A DNA stretch of 64,000 nucleotides from Tumebacillus lacus. Its GTDB lineage: Bacteria; Bacillota; Bacilli; Tumebacillales; Tumebacillaceae. A model generated the notes under the pieces. It did no database searches. It was not told where the DNA came from and saw only the letters and a list, made by a program, of their open reading frames with translations. This document shows positions 53,127 through 64,000 of the stretch, in pieces; within the stretch, counting starts at the first letter, position 1; the number at the start of each line of letters is the position of its first letter. The stretch lies in the NCBI RefSeq assembly GCF_026410385.1, contig NZ_JAPMLT010000004.1, forward strand, positions 248,001-312,000, given 5' to 3'. Made by a program: the position numbers and the translations under genes.

Positions 53127-53168
53127 GCGGTGTACCGCCCAAACTCCGGTCAAAGGGGGAATCTTCTC

Positions 53169-53645
53169 ATGGGGAACAATCGCAACCGCAACCGAGTCGA
53201 AGTACCCGGCGCACGCGCTGCATTGGATCACCTCAAAACAGAAGTTGCTTCCGAACTGGGCATTCCGAACTATGACCAGCTGGATTTGGGTGCTCTGCCA
53301 TCCCGCCTGAACGGGAAAGTCGGCGGCTTGATGGTGAGAAAGATGATCGAGTTCGCCGAACATGCGATGCAGGGATCGCCGCAAGTCTTGCAAGCGGTTG
53401 AAGCGGAGCCGGGAGCTACTCAGGAAGACATCCGCGTGGCCCAGCAATCGATGCAGGCCGCGAATGCTTTCGTGGGGCAGTTCAACCAAACGGGGCAACT
53501 GCCGCAACAACAAATGCAGGCGACGGGGTTGCCTTTGCAAGCATTTAATGAGCAGTTGCAGGCGTTGAACCAGCAACAGCCCATGCCGAATCCCGCGATG
53601 CAACAGGATGCGCAGGCGTTCCTTGAAGGACCATCGTTCCAGTAG
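53169..53645 (+). CDS. alpha/beta-type small acid-soluble spore protein with Gln-rich C-terminal extension
   Basis: 158 residues; ATG at 53169 after AAAGGGGGA. Residues about 13-70 form an alpha/beta SASP domain: ALDHLKTEVASELGIPNYDQ with the GPR-type cleavage region, then SRLNGKVGGLMVRKMIEFAE. Such proteins coat spore DNA and are degraded on germination. The family is usually 60-95 residues; here about 85 further residues rich in Gln, Met and Ala (QLPQQQMQATGLPLQAFNEQ and similar) follow. The extension could be an additional amino acid store or mediate assembly. Confidence 0.85.
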   Translation: MGNNRNRNRVEVPGARAALDHLKTEVASELGIPNYDQLDLGALPSRLNGKVGGLMVRKMIEFAEHAMQGSPQVLQAVEAEPGATQEDIRVAQQSMQAANAFVGQFNQTGQLPQQQMQATGLPLQAFNEQLQALNQQQPMPNPAMQQDAQAFLEGPSFQ

Positions 53646-54977: not shown

Positions 54978-55007
54978 TTGACAAAAAGTTAGGTTCGTTG
55001 TGATAAT
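54978..55007 (+). promoter_or_regulatory. promoter of the polyketide operon
   Basis: TTGACA (54978-54983), 18-base spacer, GATAAT (55002-55007), in an AT-rich stretch. The predicted leader is about 110 bases before the first start codon; I see no known riboswitch in it. The whole operon to the window edge lacks another obvious promoter. Confidence 0.75.
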
Positions 55008-55124: not shown

Positions 55125-55865
55125 TTGCTGAATGGGAAGCGGTACTTAGTGACCGGCGGGTCCCGCGGCATTGGCCGTGCGACCGTTTTGGCTCTGGCAG
55201 AGGCAGGAGCTGACGTCGCGTTTACCTACAGCAGCAACGAAGAGGCGGCTCACGATGTCTGTAAGGCGGCGGAGGGCTACTCGGGCAAGGTGCTGGCGAT
55301 TCAGGCAAACGCAGAAGATTTCGCAGCGGCGAAATCGGCGGTCGAACGGGTTCACGATGAGCTCGGCGGCTTGGATGGCGTTGTGATCAACGCGGGCATC
55401 ACGAAAGACCGCCCGCTGGTGATGATGCCGGAGGGAGACTGGGATGATGTGATCGCCACCAACCTCAAAGGCACGTTCAACTACGCACGGGCTGCCGTCT
55501 ACGGCATGATCCGTGAGCGCAGCGGCCGCATCGTCTGCGTCTCCTCGGTCAGCGGACTGACCGGCGTGCTCGGACAATCGAACTACTCGGCGACAAAAGC
55601 CGGACAGATCGGTTTCGTCCGCTCCTTGTCCAAAGAGGTGGGACCGTACGGCATCACCGTTAACGCGGTGGCCCCCGGTTTTATTGAGACCGACATCTGG
55701 GAACAGATCCCGGAGAACAAGCGCGAAGGCATTCTGGCCAGCATTCCGGTCGGACGTCTCGGTCAAGCGCAGGAAGTCGCGGCGGCGATCCGCTACTTGC
55801 TCTCGCCGGATGCGGCGTACATCACCGGCAGCGTTCTGGTGATCGACGGCGGGCTCAGCTCGTAG
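55125..55865 (+). CDS. FabG-like ketoreductase (SDR) of the type II PKS operon
   Basis: 246 residues; TTG start after GGAGAGGTG. The SDR cofactor motif TGGSRGIGRA (residues 8-17), NAG, and the catalytic Tyr154/Lys158 in NYSATKAG, with the Ser about 13 residues before, are all present. Close in form to FabG (beta-ketoacyl-ACP reductase, NADPH). As first gene of the operon it most likely reduces the growing beta-ketoacyl chain on the ACP. A second SDR is encoded at 60419. Confidence 0.88.
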   Translation: MLNGKRYLVTGGSRGIGRATVLALAEAGADVAFTYSSNEEAAHDVCKAAEGYSGKVLAIQANAEDFAAAKSAVERVHDELGGLDGVVINAGITKDRPLVMMPEGDWDDVIATNLKGTFNYARAAVYGMIRERSGRIVCVSSVSGLTGVLGQSNYSATKAGQIGFVRSLSKEVGPYGITVNAVAPGFIETDIWEQIPENKREGILASIPVGRLGQAQEVAAAIRYLLSPDAAYITGSVLVIDGGLSS

Positions 55866-55935
55866 TCGTCTCATCATCGAAATAATCAAAATAGTTTTTA
55901 CTTAATCTAACTTACTATTCTGGGAGGAATCAATC

Positions 55936-56184
55936 ATGAACGAAATGGAACTGAAAGGTCAACTGAAAGAAATCATCGCAGAGATCATCGAAGTCGACGA
56001 GTTCGGCGACGACGAAAACTTTGTCCGCGACCTCGGCGTCGACTCGATGATGGCACTGGAGATCGTCGCTCGCATCGAGAAGAGCTACCGTATCCGCATC
56101 CCGGAAGAATTCCTGCCGGAGATCAAGACCCTGACGGACGTCACCCGTGTCGTCTCCAACGTTATGCAGCCGATCAACGGCTAA
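55936..56184 (+). CDS. acyl carrier protein
   Basis: 82 residues; AGGAGG before the ATG at 55936. The attachment Ser37 for phosphopantetheine is in DLGVDSMMALEI. An acidic four-helix protein like ACPs of type II PKS/FAS. It sits directly before the KS/CLF pair, as expected of a minimal PKS. No phosphopantetheinyl transferase is in view. Confidence 0.93.
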   Translation: MNEMELKGQLKEIIAEIIEVDEFGDDENFVRDLGVDSMMALEIVARIEKSYRIRIPEEFLPEIKTLTDVTRVVSNVMQPING

Positions 56185-56238
56185 TTCCGTCTGAAGCTAT
56201 AGGAAATACTTCATATACGAATAAAAGGAGGAACCAGG

Positions 56239-57450
56239 ATGTCACGACGCATTGCGATCACCGGTCTTGGCGTGTTGTCGCCGATCGGGATCGGTCATCA
56301 GGAGTTTTGGAACAACCTGATCGCCGGCACGGTGGGCACCAAGAAGATCAAAGCGTTTGACACTTCGATCTTCGACGTGCACAACGGCGGCGAGGTCGAC
56401 GGTTTCGTACCGGATCAATATTTCAAAGTGATCAACCCGGAAGTGGCGGGCCGCACGACTCAACTGGCGGTCGCCGCAGCCCGGATGGCTGTCGAGGACG
56501 CAGGTCTGACGGGCGACTCGTATGAAGGCGAGCGCATCGGGGTCTGCATGGGCACGACGATGGGCAACCAATCGGTCGTCGAGGATGACAACGATGCGCA
56601 GATCAAGGGCGGTTCGCCGTTGATCCCCGATCTCGTCTCTCACTACGCGGAGGTGTACATCTCGGCGGCGGTGGCGGAAGAGATGGGCGCAGAAGGTCCG
56701 ATCTCCGTAGTCCCGACCGCATGCGCGGCCGGCAACTACGCGATCTCTTGGGGCGCGGACCTGATCCGCGACGGGCTGGTCGATGTCGCCATCGTCGGCG
56801 GTGCAGACGCGATCTCGCGCGGTTGCTTCGCGGTGTTCCATCGCCTCGGTGCCATCGCACCGGAGGTCTGCCAGCCGTTCGACGTCAACCGCAAAGGGAT
56901 GATGGTCGCGGAGGGCGCCGGCTGCGTCATCCTTGAGGATTACGACAAAGCGGTCGCTCGCGGCGCGCACATCTACGCCGAACTGCTCGGCTACGGTCTC
57001 GCCTGCGATGCGCATCACCCGACCGCTCCGCACCCGGAAGGTCTCGGTGCAAAAGGCGCGATGCAACGCGCATTGGTGGAAGCCGGGATCGGCGCCGAAT
57101 CGGTCAACTACGTTTCAGCACACGGCACCGGCACCCGCGCCAACGACTCCTCGGAGTCGCGCTCGGTCCGCGACGTGTTTGGCGTTCGTGCTGATGAACT
57201 GCCGACCTCCTCGATCAAATCGATGCTCGGTCACACGATGGGTGCCGCCTCCGCGATTGAAGCGGTCACCTGTGCGCTGACGATCAAGCACGGCGTGATC
57301 CCGCCGACGGTCAACTTTAAAGAATCGGACCCGGACTGCCTCAATCAGATCGTTCCGAATGAAGCGATGTCCTATCCCGTGGAAGTGGCGCTGAGCAACT
57401 CGTTTGCATTTGGCGGCAACATCTCCACGATCATCATGGGGAGAGTGTAA
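56239..57450 (+). CDS. ketosynthase alpha (KAS II/FabF-type) of a type II PKS
   Basis: 403 residues with the full catalytic set: Cys162 in PTACAAGN, His295 in SAHGTGT, His332 in MLGHTMGAAS. It catalyses Claisen condensation of malonyl-ACP onto the growing chain. It is followed after 3 bases by a non-catalytic paralogue, so it acts as the KS half of a heterodimer. FabF of primary metabolism is an alternative, but the CLF neighbour argues against it. Confidence 0.93.
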   Translation: MSRRIAITGLGVLSPIGIGHQEFWNNLIAGTVGTKKIKAFDTSIFDVHNGGEVDGFVPDQYFKVINPEVAGRTTQLAVAAARMAVEDAGLTGDSYEGERIGVCMGTTMGNQSVVEDDNDAQIKGGSPLIPDLVSHYAEVYISAAVAEEMGAEGPISVVPTACAAGNYAISWGADLIRDGLVDVAIVGGADAISRGCFAVFHRLGAIAPEVCQPFDVNRKGMMVAEGAGCVILEDYDKAVARGAHIYAELLGYGLACDAHHPTAPHPEGLGAKGAMQRALVEAGIGAESVNYVSAHGTGTRANDSSESRSVRDVFGVRADELPTSSIKSMLGHTMGAASAIEAVTCALTIKHGVIPPTVNFKESDPDCLNQIVPNEAMSYPVEVALSNSFAFGGNISTIIMGRV

Positions 57451-57453
57451 GCG

Positions 57454-58692
57454 ATGACCTATCAAGCAGACTCCATTGTCATCACAGGGATCGGCGCTGT
57501 GTCCGCCTTCGGTCTCGGTGCCGACGCGGTCTGGGCGGCGCTGGAAAACGGCGAGACGCCGCGCGCGCTGCTCGAAGGCGAAGCGACCTCTTCCCCGCAG
57601 ACCCCGTACGGGGTGAAGGTGGGCAACTGGAACCCGGTCGAACTGCTCGGCAAACGGGGCTTGCAATTCCTGCGCCCCAGCACCCAGTTCCTGCTCGGCG
57701 CGTCGCAACTGGCACTCGCCGAAGCGGGTCTGAACGAGCAGATGCCCGATCCGGACGACCTCGGCGTCGTCATCGGCACCAACCTCGCCGGGCTCCAATC
57801 GATCACCAACTACGACTTCACCGCTGTCACGGAAGGGCCGCAGTACGTCTCGCCGATGGAAGCGCCGAACACGCTGGCGAACGCACCGGCCTCGCATCTC
57901 GCGATCCGCGTGCAAGCCCGTGCGCTGAACACGACGATCGCGTCCGGCCAGTGCGCAGGGTTTGACGCGCTCGGCTATGCGTCCAAGATGCTGCGCGAAG
58001 GCCGTGCCCGCTATGTGCTGGTCGGCGGCGTCGAAGAGCTGAACGAGCGGGTGCTGTGGATGTACCAAAATTCCAACGTCCTGCCGCACGAACGCCCGGA
58101 AGACGCGGGTCGTCCGTTCGACGGCAAGAGCACCGGCTGGGTGCCGGGCGAAGGCGCGGCTGTGCTCGTGCTGGAGCGCTACGAAGATGCGGTCAACCGC
58201 GGTGCGAAACCGCTGGCTGAACTGGTCTCATGGGCAGCGTCCTTCTCCGCACCGTCCTCGGTGGAAAAACGGGCGAAGGGACTCGCTCGTGCGGCGAAAA
58301 ACGCGCTGCAGATCGCGAAATTGTCTGCCGAAGAGATCGACCTCGTCGTCTCCGGTGCGAACGGGCATCACGAACAGGACCGTGCGGAAGCGATGGCGAT
58401 CACCGAACTGTTCGGCGAGCAACGTCCGAACGTCGACGTGTGTGCGATCAAAGGCACGCTCGGCGAGTCGTACGGCGCGAGCGGCCTGTTCCAGGCTGTG
58501 GCTGCTGTCGGCGCGCTCCAGCGCGGCACCGTTCCGGCGACCGCAGGCTATGAATCTGAAGATTCCGAAGCTCCGCACCTGCCGGGCCTGCGCGCCGAAT
58601 CGCGCAGCTTTGCAGGCAACCATGTCCTCCTGACCGGCCAAGACCTGTTCGGCTCGGCCAGCGCGGTCGTGCTGCGCGGTGCCGGCGCGTAA
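57454..58692 (+). CDS. chain-length factor (ketosynthase beta)
   Basis: 412 residues of thiolase fold aligned to the KS upstream. The nucleophile Cys is replaced by Gln166 (SGQCAGFDAL aligned to TACAAGNYAI; the adjacent Cys167 is one position off), the first His motif reads SGANGHHEQD in place of SAHGTGT, and the second His is Glu338 (LGESYGAS). Gln at the Cys position is the classic mark of chain-length factors, which pair with KS and set chain length. The start is 3 bases after the KS stop. Confidence 0.88.
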   Translation: MTYQADSIVITGIGAVSAFGLGADAVWAALENGETPRALLEGEATSSPQTPYGVKVGNWNPVELLGKRGLQFLRPSTQFLLGASQLALAEAGLNEQMPDPDDLGVVIGTNLAGLQSITNYDFTAVTEGPQYVSPMEAPNTLANAPASHLAIRVQARALNTTIASGQCAGFDALGYASKMLREGRARYVLVGGVEELNERVLWMYQNSNVLPHERPEDAGRPFDGKSTGWVPGEGAAVLVLERYEDAVNRGAKPLAELVSWAASFSAPSSVEKRAKGLARAAKNALQIAKLSAEEIDLVVSGANGHHEQDRAEAMAITELFGEQRPNVDVCAIKGTLGESYGASGLFQAVAAVGALQRGTVPATAGYESEDSEAPHLPGLRAESRSFAGNHVLLTGQDLFGSASAVVLRGAGA

Positions 58693-58709
58693 CGAAAGGG
58701 GTTTCCTCA

Positions 58710-59159
58710 ATGACGACGACTATCAAGCTCGGCTTTGATCAAGTTCGCCGCCTGCTGCCTCAGGCGTACCCGTTTTGCCTCGTGGACGTAGTCGAAGAAC
58801 TGACACCTGGCGAGCGGATCGTCGCCCGGAAAAACATCTCGGGGAACGAGTGGATGTTCCCCGGGCATTTTCCGGACAAAGCGATCTATCCGGGCGTGCT
58901 GCTGATCGAAGGCATGGCCCAGACCTCGATCCTGCTGTTCAAAGGGGCGGAAGATCAGGACGCTGATTTTGAAGGCGCGACCTTCATGATCGCCTCGGTC
59001 AAATCGAGATTTCTCGCGCCGGTCGTGCCGGGCGATCAAGTCCGCTACACCTGTGAAGTGGTCAAGGTGGTCTCCACCGGCGGCGTGATGGAATGCACAG
59101 CGACTGTTGACGGCAACGTGGTCGCCAAGGCAGACCTGACCTTTGCGGTTCAACGATAA
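58710..59159 (+). CDS. FabZ-like 3-hydroxyacyl-ACP dehydratase
   Basis: 149 residues of the hotdog fold with the FabZ signature MFPGHFPDKAIYPGVLLIEG: His53 is catalytic and the Glu 14 residues later acts with it. It should dehydrate the hydroxyacyl chain made by the ketoreductase, leaving double bonds. With KS, CLF, ACP and KR it completes a set that can build a polyene. Confidence 0.9.
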   Translation: MTTTIKLGFDQVRRLLPQAYPFCLVDVVEELTPGERIVARKNISGNEWMFPGHFPDKAIYPGVLLIEGMAQTSILLFKGAEDQDADFEGATFMIASVKSRFLAPVVPGDQVRYTCEVVKVVSTGGVMECTATVDGNVVAKADLTFAVQR

Positions 59160-59174
59160 AGGGGAGGGGTCTTT

Positions 59175-60404
59175 GTGAAAACGGATGTTGTCGTGATTGG
59201 CGGCGGTGTGGCCGGAGCCGCATCCGCCTTTTTCCTCGCAATCAAAGGGCTGCGCGTCGTCGTGCTCGACAAGACGCGGTTTCCCCGCGATAAGATCTGC
59301 ACCTCGACGGTCAACCCGCGCACGATGACCTATCTGCTCCAGATGGGCGTGATGAAAGAGCTGCTCAAAGACGGCATGCTTCCGGTCGAAGGGATGCAGG
59401 GTGTGTCCTATGAAGGCAACTCCTTCAGAGGCTACTACGGGGAGAGCCATTACCCGTATGTGAACTTCGGCCACACGATCCCCCGCCACCGCCTTGACAG
59501 CGCGATGGCCGACCGGATCAAAGCGTTGCCGAATGTGGAATTTCTGGAAGACTGGGCGGTCGAAGAAGTTCTGTACGACGCTTCCGGACGCGCCGTCGGC
59601 GTGCGCGGCAACCACGAGGGCATCGTGACCGACATCCATGCCGACATGGTGATCGACGCAGCGGGACGCGGTTCCATCGTCGCCCGCCAAAACGGATTTT
59701 TCGAACCGGTCACCGACCATGAACGCTATGCGGTCGTCTGCCAGTTTGACAACGTCGACCTGCCGCACCCGCTGTTCACCATCGGCACCGACGATCAGAC
59801 CGGCCCTGGCTACTACTGCGTGTTCCCGGTGACGGAGACGACGTCGATCCTCGGCTTTATCATCGACAAAAAAGTCTATGAAAAAGTCCAGGCCGATCCG
59901 GGTGCTTGGGTGGACGAGTATGTGCGCCGTCCGGACTGGCACTGCCGCGAGTGGCTGGCGAACGCCGTCCGCTCGACCGATGTGGTCACGTTTGGCCCGC
60001 TGGCGTTCAACTCGAAGCAGATCACGAAGAACGGCATTTTGATGGTCGGCGACACGACCGGATTTTTCGATCCGCTGACCGGCGAAGGCATCGGCAACGC
60101 CCTGCGCTCCGGGGAGCTGGCGGCCGACACGGTCGCGAAGCTGCTCGGCGGCGGCGCAGACTGGGACGCGGAGCATGAGTTCTACGCGAAACAACTCATG
60201 TCGGAGAAAAAGGAAAGCGTCGATCAACTGATCCAGATGAACCGGATGCTCAAACGTCCGATCGTCTACAACCGCTTTGTCGACGCGCTCTCTCAAAACC
60301 AAGAAGCTGCAAACTGGGCAGCGCGCTCCTTTGCCAACATGTTGCCGGCGGGTGAACGCTCGTCCGGACGTCTATTTGAGCTTGTCGCAGCGCGGCAAGC
60401 GTAG
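59175..60404 (+). CDS. FAD-dependent oxidoreductase, geranylgeranyl-reductase/FixC-like
   Basis: 409 residues; GTG start after GGGGAGGGG. N-terminal FAD motif VVVIGGGVAGAASAFFLA, the RxxxxR-type region PRHRLDSAMADR, and a second FAD contact GDTTGFFDPLTGEGIGNAL typical of the geranylgeranyl reductase and flavin-halogenase superfamily. The halogenase WxWxIP motif is not seen. A double-bond reductase or hydroxylase acting on the polyketide chain is plausible; the reaction is not determined. Confidence 0.8.
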   Translation: MKTDVVVIGGGVAGAASAFFLAIKGLRVVVLDKTRFPRDKICTSTVNPRTMTYLLQMGVMKELLKDGMLPVEGMQGVSYEGNSFRGYYGESHYPYVNFGHTIPRHRLDSAMADRIKALPNVEFLEDWAVEEVLYDASGRAVGVRGNHEGIVTDIHADMVIDAAGRGSIVARQNGFFEPVTDHERYAVVCQFDNVDLPHPLFTIGTDDQTGPGYYCVFPVTETTSILGFIIDKKVYEKVQADPGAWVDEYVRRPDWHCREWLANAVRSTDVVTFGPLAFNSKQITKNGILMVGDTTGFFDPLTGEGIGNALRSGELAADTVAKLLGGGADWDAEHEFYAKQLMSEKKESVDQLIQMNRMLKRPIVYNRFVDALSQNQEAANWAARSFANMLPAGERSSGRLFELVAARQA

Positions 60405-60418
60405 CGGAGGGAACCACG

Positions 60419-61240
60419 ATGAATGAGACGTTTACAGGCCGCACCTACCTCGTCACCGGCGCGGCTCGCGGCATCGGCCGCGAACTGGTCAAAATGCTGG
60501 CTGCCGAAGGGGCAGAGGTCTTTTTCACCTATTACCAAGAGCAAGACAAAGTCGATTCCCTGCTCGATGAACTCGGTCCGCTGGCTGCCAACGTCGCGTG
60601 CGTCGAACAAGACGCTCGCGTGCCGGAAGGGGCGCAGCGCGTCGTCGATCTCGCCATCGAGCGTTTTGGCAAAATCGACGGTCTGATCAACAACGCCGGC
60701 TACAAAGTCGACCGTTCGTTTGTGATGATGCATCAGGAAGACTGGGATGACCAGATGAACATCAACCTGAACAGCGTCTACCACTACTCCCGCGCAGTCG
60801 CCTACCACATGATGCGCCGCAAATACGGCCGGATCATCGTCATGGGCGCCGTCTCGGGCTCGCTGATCGCAGGTCCGTATCAAGTGGCGTACGGCGCGTC
60901 GAAGGCCGGTCTGATCGGCTTCACCAAATCGCTGGCCTACGAACTGGCCCGCTTCAACGTCACCGTCAACATGGTCACCGGCGGCATGATCAACACCGAC
61001 GGCATGAAATTCCCGGAGGACATCCGCAAAGTCTGGGCGGAGCACATCCCGCTGCAACGGCTCGGCAACGCGCCGGAAGTGGCGTCGATGGTCAAATATC
61101 TGCTCACCCCGATGTCCGACTACATCACCGGACAAAACTTCGTCATCGACGGCGGCATGACGCTGCTCGGCTTTACGAAGATCGAAAATATGTTGCCGTC
61201 CTACAACAAGGGCGCATCGAATCTCGGCCAAACGATTTAA
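60419..61240 (+). CDS. second FabG-like short-chain reductase
   Basis: 273 residues with TGAARGIGRE at the N-terminus, NNAG, and Tyr158/Lys162 in AYGASKAG. The C-terminus is about 25 residues longer than usual (LGFTKIENMLPSYNKGASNL). It begins 14 bases after the oxidoreductase stop. It may serve a different chain position or a tailoring reduction. Confidence 0.87.
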   Translation: MNETFTGRTYLVTGAARGIGRELVKMLAAEGAEVFFTYYQEQDKVDSLLDELGPLAANVACVEQDARVPEGAQRVVDLAIERFGKIDGLINNAGYKVDRSFVMMHQEDWDDQMNINLNSVYHYSRAVAYHMMRRKYGRIIVMGAVSGSLIAGPYQVAYGASKAGLIGFTKSLAYELARFNVTVNMVTGGMINTDGMKFPEDIRKVWAEHIPLQRLGNAPEVASMVKYLLTPMSDYITGQNFVIDGGMTLLGFTKIENMLPSYNKGASNLGQTI

Positions 61241-61255
61241 GGAGGGCATTCCAAT

Positions 61256-62884
61256 ATGTCGAAAGTAACCGGCGCCGTCGAACAAGCGCTGAAAAACCCC
61301 GCACCGCTGGCATCCAGCTATGACGCAATCGTAATCGGAGCCGGCATCGGCGGCCTGTTCTGCGCCAACTTCCTGGCACACGCAGGCGTCAAGACGCTGC
61401 TGATCGAACGCCACGACCTCGTCGGCGGCTATATGCAAGGCGGCTGGCACCGCGGCTTCTATTTTGACTACGGCACGCAGTCCAACGAGATCAAAGGCGC
61501 GATCGAACCGGCGCTGGAAGTACTCGGCCTGTCTGACCGCGTCACGTTCCACCAGTGCCACCACCGCTTCATGACCCCGGACGGCCTCGACCTGTCCTAC
61601 CACACCCTCGACGACGCGGAGCGCGAGTTTTCCGCTGCGTTCCCGGAGACGGCAGACGGCATCAAAAAGTACTTCGACTACTACCGCCGTGTCACCGAAG
61701 TCTCCAAGATGGTCAACATCGACGGCCTCGGCTCGATCATCAAGGGCAACTCGATGGAGTGGATGCCGGACTACCACGCGTATTGGAAGACCAAACCGTA
61801 CTACGAAGAGATGATGGAGTACGATTCGATCCACTCCTGGCGCAAAGCCCGCGAGTTCCTCGGCGGCGACTCCCGCATCGCCCGCGTCCTGACGCACTTC
61901 GGTTATCGCAACCAGTCCTGCCTCTCCACCGGGATCTTCTGGCACATGTGGCGCGAGGACTACTTCTACAATGAAGGCGGCAAACAAGTCTTCATGGACA
62001 TGCTGGCAGACGCGTTCGTCGAGCGCGGCGGCACGCTCGCGATGAAGACCGACGTCGAAGAGATCCTCATCGACGGCGACACCGCAGTCGGCGTGCGCCT
62101 CGCAAACGGCAAAGTGGTTCGCGCGTCCAACATCATCTCCAACGCCGACATGAAGCTGACGTTTGAAAAGCTGTGCGGCGGCCACGAACTGCTCCAGCCG
62201 TGGATCCAACAGATGCGCAAAACCACGCTGTCGGAAGCGTTCTTCTCCGTCTACCTCGGCCTCGACATGCCGGTCGAAGAGCTCAACGAGCACCTCAAAG
62301 GCGCGCATCACTCCTGGATCTTCCCGACCGACAACCCGGTCGCCGAACCGTTCGACCTGTCGTTCCACGGCGGCTTGCCGGTCGAAATCTCCGCTCCGTG
62401 CCTGCATGACCCGTCGCTGGCACCGGAAGGCCAGTCTTCGGTCGTACTCCAGACGTTCTCGTTCTTTGACTGGATGAACCGCTGGAACATCACTGCCGAC
62501 GGCCGTCGCGCAGGCGACTACCGCGACACGAAAAAAGCGGTCGAGCAGCAGATCATCGAAAACTTTGCCAAAGTCGTGCCGGGCGTGCAAGACAAGATCA
62601 AGTTCCAATTTTCTTCCACGCCGCTCACTCACAAGCGTTACACGATGAACGAAGAGGGTGCGACCGGCGCTTGGACGTGGAACCCGAAGCGCACGTTCGT
62701 CAAACTGACCGAACAGCGCGTGACCACGCCGATCAAAAACCTGTACTGCGGCGGCCACTGGGCGCTCTATCCGGGCGGCCTGCTCACCGCGACCATCGCG
62801 GGCAAGATGGCGGCCGACTGCGTCATCCACGGCTACGACCCGGAAAAAGCGGCAGCATCCGCTGAGATGGTCGGTTCCAACTAG
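61256..62884 (+). CDS. CrtI/phytoene-desaturase-like FAD oxidoreductase
   Basis: 542 residues. FAD-binding motif AIVIGAGIGGLFCANFLA near residue 24, a GG doublet (LVGGYMQGGW), and the C-terminal FAD contact LYCGGHWALYPGGLLTATIAG, as in carotenoid desaturases/isomerases and retinol saturases. Its company is a polyketide operon, and the carotenoid desaturase of this strain is encoded at 10422, so its substrate is probably the polyene chain: desaturation, isomerisation or saturation. AGGAGG before the ATG. Confidence 0.82.
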   Translation: MSKVTGAVEQALKNPAPLASSYDAIVIGAGIGGLFCANFLAHAGVKTLLIERHDLVGGYMQGGWHRGFYFDYGTQSNEIKGAIEPALEVLGLSDRVTFHQCHHRFMTPDGLDLSYHTLDDAEREFSAAFPETADGIKKYFDYYRRVTEVSKMVNIDGLGSIIKGNSMEWMPDYHAYWKTKPYYEEMMEYDSIHSWRKAREFLGGDSRIARVLTHFGYRNQSCLSTGIFWHMWREDYFYNEGGKQVFMDMLADAFVERGGTLAMKTDVEEILIDGDTAVGVRLANGKVVRASNIISNADMKLTFEKLCGGHELLQPWIQQMRKTTLSEAFFSVYLGLDMPVEELNEHLKGAHHSWIFPTDNPVAEPFDLSFHGGLPVEISAPCLHDPSLAPEGQSSVVLQTFSFFDWMNRWNITADGRRAGDYRDTKKAVEQQIIENFAKVVPGVQDKIKFQFSSTPLTHKRYTMNEEGATGAWTWNPKRTFVKLTEQRVTTPIKNLYCGGHWALYPGGLLTATIAGKMAADCVIHGYDPEKAAASAEMVGSN

Positions 62885-62898
62885 GAGGTGCTGGCCCC

Positions 62899-63420
62899 GT
62901 GCCGACGAGCAAAGAAGAAGAAAAGCTCTATATGATGTGGTGGCTGCATGACGGCCAATGGTACCAAAACGTCGCCAAGCGATTCGGATTTGATGCGGCG
63001 AACGAGATCAACAAGGAAGCGGCCCGCTTTATGGCTCGCCGCTCCATGCAGTTGCTCGTTCGCGAGCGCGGCATCGACCCGGATGAGATCACGTTGGAAG
63101 AAGCGGTCGAACTGTACATGACCGCTGCGAAAAACATGTGGGCAGACGGCTGGGTCGAGCTGGAGGCTTCGATCACCGGCGACGATACGTTTGACGTCAC
63201 CACCACGAAAAACTTTGCCCTGCAATGGATCGACAAAGCGGGCACCCTCGACAAATACGACTGCCCCTGCCTCGAACTGCGCGAAGGCTGGTTCAAAGGC
63301 CTTGGCATTCGTAAATTTGAACAGGGCAAAAACTCCTGCATGTGCGACGGCGCAGAGGCGTGCACCTTCTGGGCGAAGGTCAACCTGCCGAGCGCCGCAA
63401 ACAAGGAGGAAGCGAAATAG
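62899..63420 (+). CDS. DUF6125 / ATC-hydrolase-like protein
   Basis: 173 residues; GTG start after AGGAGGTG. N-terminal helical pattern WWLHDGQWYQNVAKRFGFD and INKEAARFMARR, and a cysteine-containing C-terminal half (DCPCLELREGWFKGLG, NSCMCDGAEACTFW). This resembles DUF6125 proteins related to L-2-amino-thiazoline-4-carboxylate hydrolases; the Cys cluster might bind metal. Function in the operon unknown. Its stop is followed directly by the next ATG. Confidence 0.55.
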   Translation: MPTSKEEEKLYMMWWLHDGQWYQNVAKRFGFDAANEINKEAARFMARRSMQLLVRERGIDPDEITLEEAVELYMTAAKNMWADGWVELEASITGDDTFDVTTTKNFALQWIDKAGTLDKYDCPCLELREGWFKGLGIRKFEQGKNSCMCDGAEACTFWAKVNLPSAANKEEAK

Positions 63421-63831
63421 ATGGACAAGCTGCTCTATCAAATCGATGGCCGCTTCGTCAAGCGCGAAGTGATCGGCCATGTGCCGAGCGGGGAGCGCAC
63501 CAACTTCCACTACATGGCGGAGATCGACGGGCCGGAGCTGAAAGGCTCCCTGCGCGGCATCGACTACGCCTTGACGGTGGACGGCGTGGTGAACGTCCAC
63601 ATCCATGAAGTGCTGACCACCGAGGAGGGCGACCTGATCACGCTGGAGCGGATCGGCCGCTCCCTCCCCTCCGAGGAGGAGGGCATCACGATCATCCAAG
63701 GCGAAGGACGGGCGCAGACCGCGTCCGCCAAGTATGCGTGGGTGAACGAGATCCCGCTGGTCTGGCAGGCGCGCTTCGATCAAAATTCGATCCACTTCAA
63801 AGCTCAAGTCCATCGCGGGGACGAAGCGTAA
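63421..63831 (+). CDS. DUF3237-like small barrel protein
   Basis: 136 residues, starting immediately after the preceding stop. The pattern GHVPSGERTNFHYMAEIDG, GSLRGIDYALTVDGV and SAKYAWVNEIPLVW matches the layout of DUF3237 proteins (small beta-barrels). A cyclase or lipocalin-like role in product folding can be imagined, but nothing in the sequence proves it. The next gene is its paralogue. Confidence 0.55.
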   Translation: MDKLLYQIDGRFVKREVIGHVPSGERTNFHYMAEIDGPELKGSLRGIDYALTVDGVVNVHIHEVLTTEEGDLITLERIGRSLPSEEEGITIIQGEGRAQTASAKYAWVNEIPLVWQARFDQNSIHFKAQVHRGDEA

Positions 63832-63857
63832 GAAGTGGACGCAGAGGAGGACAAAGC

Positions 63858-64000
63858 ATGGAAAACGTGCTGTTCCATGTAACGGGTCGCTTTACCCGTG
63901 CGGACCGCATCGGTCGCGTGCCGGAAGGAGAGCGCGGCAACTTTCACTTCAACGGTGATGTGACGGGCGAGATCAACGGCACGCTCGACGGCTGCGACTA
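63858..64000 (+). CDS. second DUF3237-like protein, cut by the window edge
   Basis: ATG at 63858 after AGGAGGACAAAGC; 47 codons before the window ends. The visible part (VLFHVTGRFTRADRIGRVPE, GERGNFHFNGDVTGEINGTL) aligns residue by residue with the N-terminus of the preceding protein, so the two are tandem paralogues. The operon continues to the right. Confidence 0.65.
   Translation, partial: MENVLFHVTGRFTRADRIGRVPEGERGNFHFNGDVTGEINGTLDGCD

What the first reader, a model, noticed from the sequence alone, without database searches (positions are those of the whole stretch)
55125..64000. Type II polyketide synthase operon in a Firmicute
ACP, KS with intact Cys162-His295-His332 and a chain-length factor with Gln166 and Glu338 at the catalytic positions form a minimal type II PKS, joined to two ketoreductases, a FabZ-like dehydratase and two FAD oxidoreductases. 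Type II PKS is typical of actinomycetes; in Gram-negatives similar sets make aryl polyenes. A reducing, polyene-forming system in a spore former may yield an unknown pigment or antioxidant.
Basis: partly seen in the sequence, partly recalled or inferred. Interest (0 to 1): 0.82.

Follow-up and report, generated by a model that had tools for sequence, protein, structure and literature searches.

The report
Polyene-type polyketide operon in Bacilli
A spore-forming bacterium carries a conserved, uncharacterised gene set that probably builds and then remodels a chain of alternating double bonds, with core enzymes whose nearest solved relatives appear to come from the anammox bacteria that make ladder-shaped membrane lipids.

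Summary
Window 55125-64000 holds a one-strand operon with an intact ketosynthase (Cys162/His295/His332), a chain-length factor (Gln166/Glu338), ACP, two ketoreductases, a FabZ-like dehydratase and two flavoproteins. Three Bacilli genomes outside the window's order carry 11 of these genes in the same order (40-80% identity); two of them compared show purifying selection. KS and CLF lie outside primary FabF and aromatic type II PKSs. They sit in the reducing (polyene) radiation shared by ishigamide/cinnamoyl-type synthases and the anammox 'ladderane-candidate' locus; the closest solved KS-CLF pair appears to be anammox. Most likely function: iterative assembly of a conjugated polyenoyl-ACP, then flavin-dependent isomerisation or desaturation, trimming and methylation. 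Nothing found supports an aryl polyene. Type II PKSs in Firmicutes are already in print, so the novelty is the conserved tailoring set and the anammox-like core. The CrtI-like enzyme does not group with the anammox one and no anammox-type radical SAM gene was found, so a ladderane product is unlikely. The product is unknown.

The parts
54978..55007 (+). promoter-like site TTGACA-N18-GATAAT with TG before the second hexamer
   Evidence: consensus match 11 of 12; 1 found, 0.5 expected in shuffles
55125..55865 (+). KR1, FabG-like ketoreductase (YxxxK at 154)
   Evidence: (PF13561, PF00106); 70-76% identical in three syntenic operons
55936..56184 (+). acyl carrier protein, DSM motif with Ser37
   Evidence: PF00550 50.8 bits
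56239..57450 (+). ketosynthase with Cys162-His295-His332
57454..58692 (+). chain-length factor: Cys replaced by Gln166, second His position Glu338
58710..59159 (+). FabZ-like dehydratase (His/Glu motif GHFPDKAIYPGVLLIEG)
   Evidence: NF000582 above its cut-off, TIGR01750 below its own; 46-49% to anammox-locus FabZ, 35.5% to own primary FabZ
59175..60404 (+). flavoprotein of the geranylgeranyl-reductase/FAD-halogenase superfamily, without a WxWxIP motif
   Evidence: TIGR02032 136.6 bits, below cut-off 158.8; best PDB 3e1t, named halogenase; motif scan
60419..61240 (+). KR2, second SDR ketoreductase (YxxxK at 158)
61256..62884 (+). CrtI/CrtISO-like FAD oxidoreductase
   Evidence: PF01593 66 bits; TIGR02730 carotenoid isomerase E 4.6e-45, below cut-off; tree
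62899..63420 (+). ATC-hydrolase/DUF6125-like protein
   Evidence: PF19620 23.4 bits, below cut-off 27; a Streptomyces homologue passes PF14196; present in 3 of 3 full syntenic operons
63421..63831 (+). DUF3237 protein, copy a
   Evidence: PF11578 22.5 bits, below cut-off 24; copy b and the G586 homologue pass it, the G674 one does not
63858..64000 (+). DUF3237 protein, copy b; continues past the window to 64259
   Evidence: L017:1858-2259, PF11578 29.4 bits over cut-off 24; 49% identical to copy a. A class I SAM methyltransferase follows to window coordinate 65041, with a terminator-like stem at its end

Best explanation
A highly reducing (polyene) type II polyketide synthase operon. Shown by sequence: the KS-CLF pair, ACP, ketoreductase and dehydratase with their catalytic residues, and no recognised FabI-type enoyl reductase beside them. 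Inferred from that: KS-CLF condenses malonyl-ACP repeatedly, KR1 reduces and the FabZ-like enzyme dehydrates each new unit, giving a conjugated polyenoyl-ACP whose length CLF helps set. Inferred and less sure: the CrtI/CrtISO-like flavoenzyme isomerises or desaturates the polyene (cinnamoyl peptides are proposed to go E to Z, 6-pi ring closure, desaturation). The second flavoprotein and KR2 adjust its redox state. The ATC-hydrolase-like protein is a candidate for release. The DUF3237 proteins may decarboxylate the freed acid, since a DUF3237 protein elsewhere resembles known decarboxylases, and the methyltransferase methylates the product. The genome has two PPTase-family proteins elsewhere. 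The product is a tailored, possibly cyclised polyene of unknown structure.
For: Catalytic residues and families. KS outside FabF and on a separate branch from aromatic type II KS, in one Bacilli clade (SH-aLRT 98) inside the radiation that holds Iga11 and cinnamoyl-type KSs. CLF in a CLF-only clade (SH-aLRT 100), not FabF. Nearest PDB for KS: 9s5h_B then Iga11 (6kxd; the name Iga11 for it is recalled), both ahead of every FabF. Two related Bacilli KS-CLF sets abut NRPS genes, as in ishigamide and cinnamoyl peptides. A CrtI-like protein also occurs about 40 kb from KS in a Streptomyces plasmid cluster that I read as cinnamoyl-type. Full synteny in 3 genomes with purifying selection between two. 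Two PPTase-family proteins in the genome, in frames of 134 and 254 aa. The DUF3237 protein PinX is 42% and 38% identical to two decarboxylases, PhcG and PhcF (PMC12607616, one passage).
Against: No product, expression or activity is known to me for this operon or its three syntenic copies. The window operon has no recognised NRPS, thioesterase, DsbA-type isomerase or starter-unit gene. SDRs of this kind could include an enoyl reductase, so full conjugation is not proved. The roles of the two flavoproteins, the ATC-hydrolase-like protein and DUF3237 rest on distant homology; kinship of these DUF3237 proteins with PinX was not tested. The single-sequence structure models were too poor to use (pLDDT 42 and 44).
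Confidence: 0.75

Rival explanations
1. A secondary fatty-acid system that makes polyunsaturated acyl chains for membrane lipids, as Rattray et al. suggested for the related anammox and Desulfotalea clusters, rather than a secreted specialised metabolite.
For: Closest solved KS-CLF appears to be anammox. PMC2649909 (abstract and section 9 read) proposes anaerobic PUFA synthesis by such clusters. No NRPS, thioesterase or starter gene recognised here.
Against: The ATC-hydrolase-like and DUF3237 genes are in 1 of 14 genomes of the order, so this is not a core lipid system; an MFS transporter lies upstream and a FAD-binding protein downstream of two of the three syntenic copies; a methyltransferase and DUF3237 proteins are not expected for membrane acyl chains.
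Confidence: 0.15
2. Ladderane-like chemistry: the operon makes strained cyclobutane-containing lipids as anammox bacteria do.
For: KS 47-50%, CLF 32-35% (five anammox loci) and FabZ 46-49% identical to those of anammox loci; same kinds of genes ACP, FabZ, KS, non-canonical FabF and CrtI-like as kuste3603-3607 (PMC4790861 passages).
Against: The CrtI-like protein groups with Bacillota proteins that are not beside PKS genes (SH-aLRT 98-99), not with the anammox one; no match to the anammox radical SAM gene in the three syntenic copies and none recognised in the window operon; the KS radiation spans many phyla not known (recalled) to make ladderanes.
Confidence: 0.03
3. An aryl-polyene or flexirubin-type pigment.
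Against: No aryl-starter, ligase, acyltransferase or thioesterase gene recognised in the operon (one 4HBT match of the FabZ-like protein falls below the cut-off). No reference APE KS was put in the tree, so kinship was not excluded directly.
Confidence: 0.04
4. An aromatic polyketide of the actinorhodin kind.
For: CLF carries the Gln seen in aromatic CLFs, 3 of 3 here.
Against: KS and CLF do not group with the three aromatic pairs; no aromatase or cyclase family matched at E 0.001; a dehydratase and two KRs are present.
Confidence: 0.03

Closest known systems
Anammox ladderane-candidate locus kuste3603-3608 and its relatives (L107, L108, L110, L113, L128)
   Same: ACP, FabZ-like, KS, non-canonical FabF/CLF, CrtI-like flavoprotein; CLF with Glu at the second His position in 6 of 6 rows; 9s5h KS and CLF are 86% and 81% identical, over the printed parts, to the Kuenenia hertensis pair and are the best PDB hits of the window's KS and CLF
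   Different: Window has KR1, KR2, a second flavoprotein, ATC-hydrolase-like, DUF3237 and methyltransferase genes and no recognised radical SAM; Gln instead of Val or Thr at the Cys position; CrtI-like protein from another clade
Ishigamide (Iga11) and cinnamoyl-type type II PKSs
   Same: KS 46-48% identical, discrete KR and DH, KS in the same radiation; a CrtI-like oxidoreductase in the NBC_01431 cluster
   Different: No NRPS and no DsbA-type isomerase recognised; their CLFs have Asp at the Glu position in 7 of 9 rows; their FabZ-like proteins are only 28-37% identical (7 proteins from 4 loci)
Other Bacilli operons: G586, G456, G674 (full), G534, G424, Paenibacillus xylaniclasticus, Shouchella tritolerans (core)
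   Same: Full set: 11 genes in the same order in 3 genomes; core KR1-ACP-KS-CLF-FabZ in all seven
   Different: One DUF3237 instead of two in the full copies; G534 and G424 have NRPS genes; Shouchella has an acetoacetate-decarboxylase-family gene and a PPTase beside the core

Membership tests
Type II polyketide synthase (minimal PKS) | KS with Cys-His-His beside a CLF lacking the Cys, plus discrete ACP | tested here: met
Type II polyketide synthase (minimal PKS) | KS and CLF separate from primary FabF in phylogeny | tested here: met
   KS tree of 64 rows: nine FabF rows plus one other Bacilli KS (L205) split off at SH-aLRT 97; CLF tree of 60 rows, CLF clade 100, FabF apart 100
Type II polyketide synthase (minimal PKS) | KS and CLF form a heterodimer and make a polyketide | not testable with these tools
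   needs protein work
Highly reducing (polyene) type II PKS | KS kinship with Iga11 and cinnamoyl-type KSs | tested here: met
   one radiation: 38-row fork SH-aLRT 88; 9-row KS clade 100 with Bacilli and Iga11/L048 joined at 96
Highly reducing (polyene) type II PKS | discrete KR and DH, no dedicated FabI-type enoyl reductase | tested here: met
   an SDR acting as enoyl reductase cannot be excluded
Cinnamoyl-containing peptide (CCNP) cluster | isomerase and NRPS beside the PKS | tested here: not met
   neither recognised in the operon or in the 11 scanned + strand ORFs up to the contig end
Anammox ladderane-candidate locus | radical SAM enzyme next to the CrtI-like gene | tested here: not met
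   none recognised in the window operon; no blast match to the anammox enzyme in the syntenic copies
Anammox ladderane-candidate locus | CrtI-like protein of the kuste3607 kind | tested here: not met
   groups with Bacillota proteins not beside PKS genes
Anammox ladderane-candidate locus | cyclobutane lipid product | not testable with these tools
   needs chemistry
Aryl polyene cluster | aryl starter supply, thioesterase and acyltransferases | tested here: not met
   none recognised by Pfam in the operon or the scanned flank
Aryl polyene cluster | KS-CLF kinship with ApeO-ApeC | not tested
   no named APE reference in the trees
Primary FAS II | KS inside FabF clade | tested here: not met

The most novel reading that the evidence does not exclude
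The Bacilli operon and the anammox ladderane locus inherited the same chain-building half (KS-CLF, FabZ-like, ACP) and each recruited a different CrtI-family flavoenzyme to rearrange a similar polyenoyl-ACP. In the Bacilli the outcome would be a polyene-derived carbocycle, decarboxylated by DUF3237 proteins to a methylated hydrocarbon. That would be a new class of natural product, and a possible culturable stand-in for the first half of ladderane assembly.
Probability: 0.13. Interest if true: 0.87.

Novelty: new variant of a known kind. Interest (0 to 1): 0.62.

Why it matters
How anammox bacteria build ladderanes is an open question in the papers seen, and PMC4790861 (2016, passage) notes that anammox bacteria had not been isolated in pure culture. 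A conserved operon in Bacilli whose KS and CLF are closest, among solved structures, to what appears to be the anammox pair offers a system in which the shared chain-building step can be expressed and deleted. It also adds an uncharacterised polyene-type gene-cluster family in Bacilli, with small and redox tailoring proteins whose substrates could be assigned.

Tried and rejected
Considered and set aside: primary FAS duplication (KS and CLF trees); aromatic type II PKS (same trees); FAD-halogenase for the 59175-60404 protein (no WxWxIP motif; the motif is recalled, and the best PDB hit is a halogenase); direct ladderane synthesis (no radical SAM recognised, other CrtI clade). The idea that the whole anammox module was shared was weakened by my own CrtI tree.

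Led nowhere: a single-protein CLF scan of genome contigs found no relative; the viral scan found none; AlphaFold of DUF3237 and of the ATC-hydrolase-like protein gave pLDDT 42 and 44, so no fold search was made; profile searches of PDB with A3 and A4 gave only weak hits, best E 0.028 and 0.054; of the phylum-wide hits of the CrtI-like protein, 10 loci from other genomes were looked at and none had a KS or CLF match in the stretch fetched; an apparent split KS in G012 is, by my reading of its neighbours, the primary FAS operon; a paper search for 9S5H gave nothing of use.

The DUF3237 phylum search (1 of 398, the own genome) drew genomes that did not include the three with the syntenic operon. 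The class search scored at most four candidates per genome. Trees are quick builds with SH-aLRT only; 23 of 61, 27 of 57, 32 of 65 and 7 of 40 inner branches are starred. One row that I had labelled anammox (L121, an unnamed bacterium) fell with Nitrospirota. FabD of this genome was not searched. The - strand ORFs right of the operon were not scanned.

Rows dropped: KS rows under 321 aa and CLF rows under 301 aa were dropped before the trees; 30 of the 80 loci were offered to the KS and CLF trees; the CrtI tree took at most two proteins of over 380 aa per locus.

Full report
What is there. Window 55125-63831 carries ten genes on one strand: KR1, ACP, KS, CLF, FabZ-like dehydratase, a flavoprotein, KR2, a CrtI/CrtISO-like flavoprotein, an ATC-hydrolase/DUF6125-like protein and a DUF3237 protein. 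The window is G000:C21:248001-312000 and the contig ends at 321656. The operon continues past the window with a second DUF3237 gene (window 63858-64259) and a class I SAM methyltransferase to window coordinate 65041 (UbiE family among its Pfam matches), with a terminator-like stem at its end. A promoter-like site with 11 of 12 consensus matches ends 118 bases before KR1. Right of the methyltransferase, 11 + strand ORFs of at least 100 aa were Pfam-scanned. None matched an acyltransferase, PPTase, exporter or starter family; RHS/Hint, YxiJ and DUF7674 matches lie there. The - strand ORFs there were not scanned. The genome has two PPTase-family proteins elsewhere. An alpha/beta-type spore protein gene at 53166-53645 supports a spore-former.

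Residues. In the alignment, 7 of 8 Bacilli CLFs have Gln at the Cys position and the most distant one (L202) has Arg. All 8 have Glu at the second His position, as do 6 of 6 anammox rows, while the three aromatic CLFs have Gln and Arg at the two places.

Conservation. A KS search of 398 Bacilli genomes (own included) gave 12 with E of 1e-95 or less; 5 of the 398 have a KS of at least 65% identity: the window's own, G586 and G456 (74%), G674 (71%), G534 (65%). G586, G456 and G674 carry KR1-ACP-KS-CLF-FabZ-FAD-KR2-CrtI-ATC-DUF3237-methyltransferase in the same order, gene by gene 40-80% identical to the window. Between G586 and G456, 10 of 11 genes show dN/dS 0.024-0.129 and dS of the eleventh is saturated; dS exceeds 1 in all, so only strong purifying selection can be read from this. 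Within the window's own order, the ATC-hydrolase-like and DUF3237 proteins are found in 1 of 14 genomes, the own one. So the operon is patchy and probably moved horizontally (inference). G534 has KR1-ACP-KS-CLF-FabZ-CrtI, then an NRPS of 2157 aa with two condensation, two adenylation and two carrier domains. G424 has the core with a CrtI-like gene, an acyl-AMP-ligase-like gene and an NRPS of condensation, adenylation, methyltransferase, carrier and reductase domains.

Phylogeny. In a 64-row KS tree the window KS is in a Bacilli clade of 8 rows (SH-aLRT 98), inside a 38-row fork (88) with anammox, Omnitrophota, Nitrospirota, Acidobacteriota and the actinobacterial polyene clade that holds Iga11 (its own support 100). 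Nine FabF rows, with one other Bacilli KS (L205) among them, lie apart (97), and three aromatic KSs form a long separate branch. In a 60-row tree the CLFs form one clade (100) and 7 of 8 Bacilli CLFs group at 99; the eighth (L202) has a very long branch. Against PDB, KS scores best with 9s5h_B (423 bits), then 6kxd (356), then FabF (291 at most); CLF scores best with 9s5h_C (218), then FabF (177). That 6kxd is Iga11 is recalled. I never saw the title of 9s5h; that it is anammox rests on 86% and 81% identity to the Kuenenia hertensis KS and CLF. The FabZ-like protein is 46-49% identical to those of the anammox loci, 35.5% to the genome's own primary FabZ and 28-37% to seven actinobacterial cluster dehydratases. 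Its best PDB hits 8ayd and 7qv0 are, from memory, anammox FabZ structures. The FabZ tree itself is weak (7 of 40 branches starred); it supports only the four-operon group (97).

A result against a simple ladderane link. The CrtI-like protein does not join the anammox CrtI-like proteins. It joins Bacillota proteins that are not beside PKS genes in the stretches fetched (SH-aLRT 98-99), and lies apart from four carotenoid enzymes. No radical SAM gene was recognised in the operon, whereas 20 of the 80 loci hold a match to the anammox one, 12 of them at 50% identity or more, and 42 of 80 have a CrtI-like protein. None of the 80 has the DUF3237 or ATC-hydrolase-like protein by blast at E 1e-5, and 2 have a match to the second flavoprotein (many loci are cut short). 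So what is shared with anammox is the chain-building part.

How it probably works. KS-CLF, KR1 and the FabZ-like enzyme without a FabI-type reductase fit iterative polyene assembly, the scheme described for reducing type II PKSs in PMC10698177 and PMC6510318 (passages). PMC6510318 gives the later steps hypothesised for cinnamoyl chains: isomerisation, 6-pi electrocyclisation, desaturation. A CrtI/CrtISO-like flavoenzyme could do the isomerisation or the desaturation (inference). The DUF3237 protein PinX is 42% and 38% identical to the decarboxylases PhcG and PhcF (PMC12607616, one passage), and a DUF3237 gene also lies in a lichen polyketide cluster (PMC8262933, one passage), so decarboxylation of the released acid is the most economical guess; kinship with PinX was not tested. 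The ATC-hydrolase-like protein has a 40% identical relative beside KS and CLF genes in one Streptomyces plasmid cluster, the only plasmid record matched, so it can accompany such synthases; hydrolytic release is a guess.

Known or new. Type II PKSs in Firmicutes are in print (PMC10132072, PMC11744666; passages). Wexrubicin and metamycin appeared only in a search listing; their Firmicute origin is recalled. I saw no paper on this operon in the listings of searches; the library lacks most subscription journals. That antiSMASH calls such loci 'ladderane' is recalled. Verdict: a real, conserved variant of reducing type II PKS, uncharacterised as far as these searches show.

Noticed in passing
G000:C5:6507-25129 (L060, L061): A second type II PKS-like cluster in the same genome: methyltransferase, ACP, KS, a CrtI-like flavoprotein and a weakly similar ORF without a Pfam match, FtsX-type permease, two DUF4872 proteins (one with a BtrH domain), FabZ, CLF-like KS, two SDRs, class III aminotransferase and another CrtI-like flavoprotein.
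   Followed up: partly
L053, L054, L055, L059 (G008, G009, G010); L070:17114-19408 (Pseudalkalibacillus plasmid): ORFs of 764-824 aa with two KS-like halves each (5 of 5), apparently fused KS-CLF. The Pseudalkalibacillus one sits with FkbH-type, KSIII, ACP and E2-type genes, which suggests a tetronate-like pathway.
   Followed up: partly
L056, L057, L058 (G008, G009, G010): A compact operon of KS, KR, second KS-like and FabZ in three same-genus genomes, with a thioesterase and two ACPs checked in L056; the KSs of L056 and L058 do not group with the window KS.
   Followed up: partly
L049:10551-28548 (Streptomyces sp. NBC_00335 plasmid): A type II PKS-like cluster with annotated aminodeoxychorismate synthase and class IV aminotransferase genes, an ATC-hydrolase-like protein and a diiron oxygenase, perhaps a 4-aminobenzoate-started polyene.
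   Followed up: no
L202:931-19646 (G424): Bacilli KS-CLF core near an NRPS with a terminal reductase, an acyl-AMP-ligase-like protein and an AcrB-family RND transporter.
   Followed up: partly
L109:12387-13631: An HMG-CoA reductase gene (Pfam match over nearly the whole model) lies between CLF and KR inside an acidobacterial KS-CLF operon.
   Followed up: no
L102-L181: KS-CLF-ACP-FabZ sets of this kind turn up in uncultured Omnitrophota, Nitrospirota, Acidobacteriota, Fibrobacterota and Planctomycetota; 42 of the 80 loci also hold a CrtI-like protein.
   Followed up: partly
L103:8191-8940: An acetoacetate-decarboxylase-family gene lies just before the Shouchella KS-CLF core.
   Followed up: no
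L069:9762-11002 (G012): What reads as the primary fabF of this genome is split into two overlapping ORFs, a frameshift or sequencing error.
   Followed up: no
L017:5289-6531: RHS-repeat/Hint fragment with a weak WapI-immunity-like match next to it, right of the operon near the contig end.
   Followed up: no
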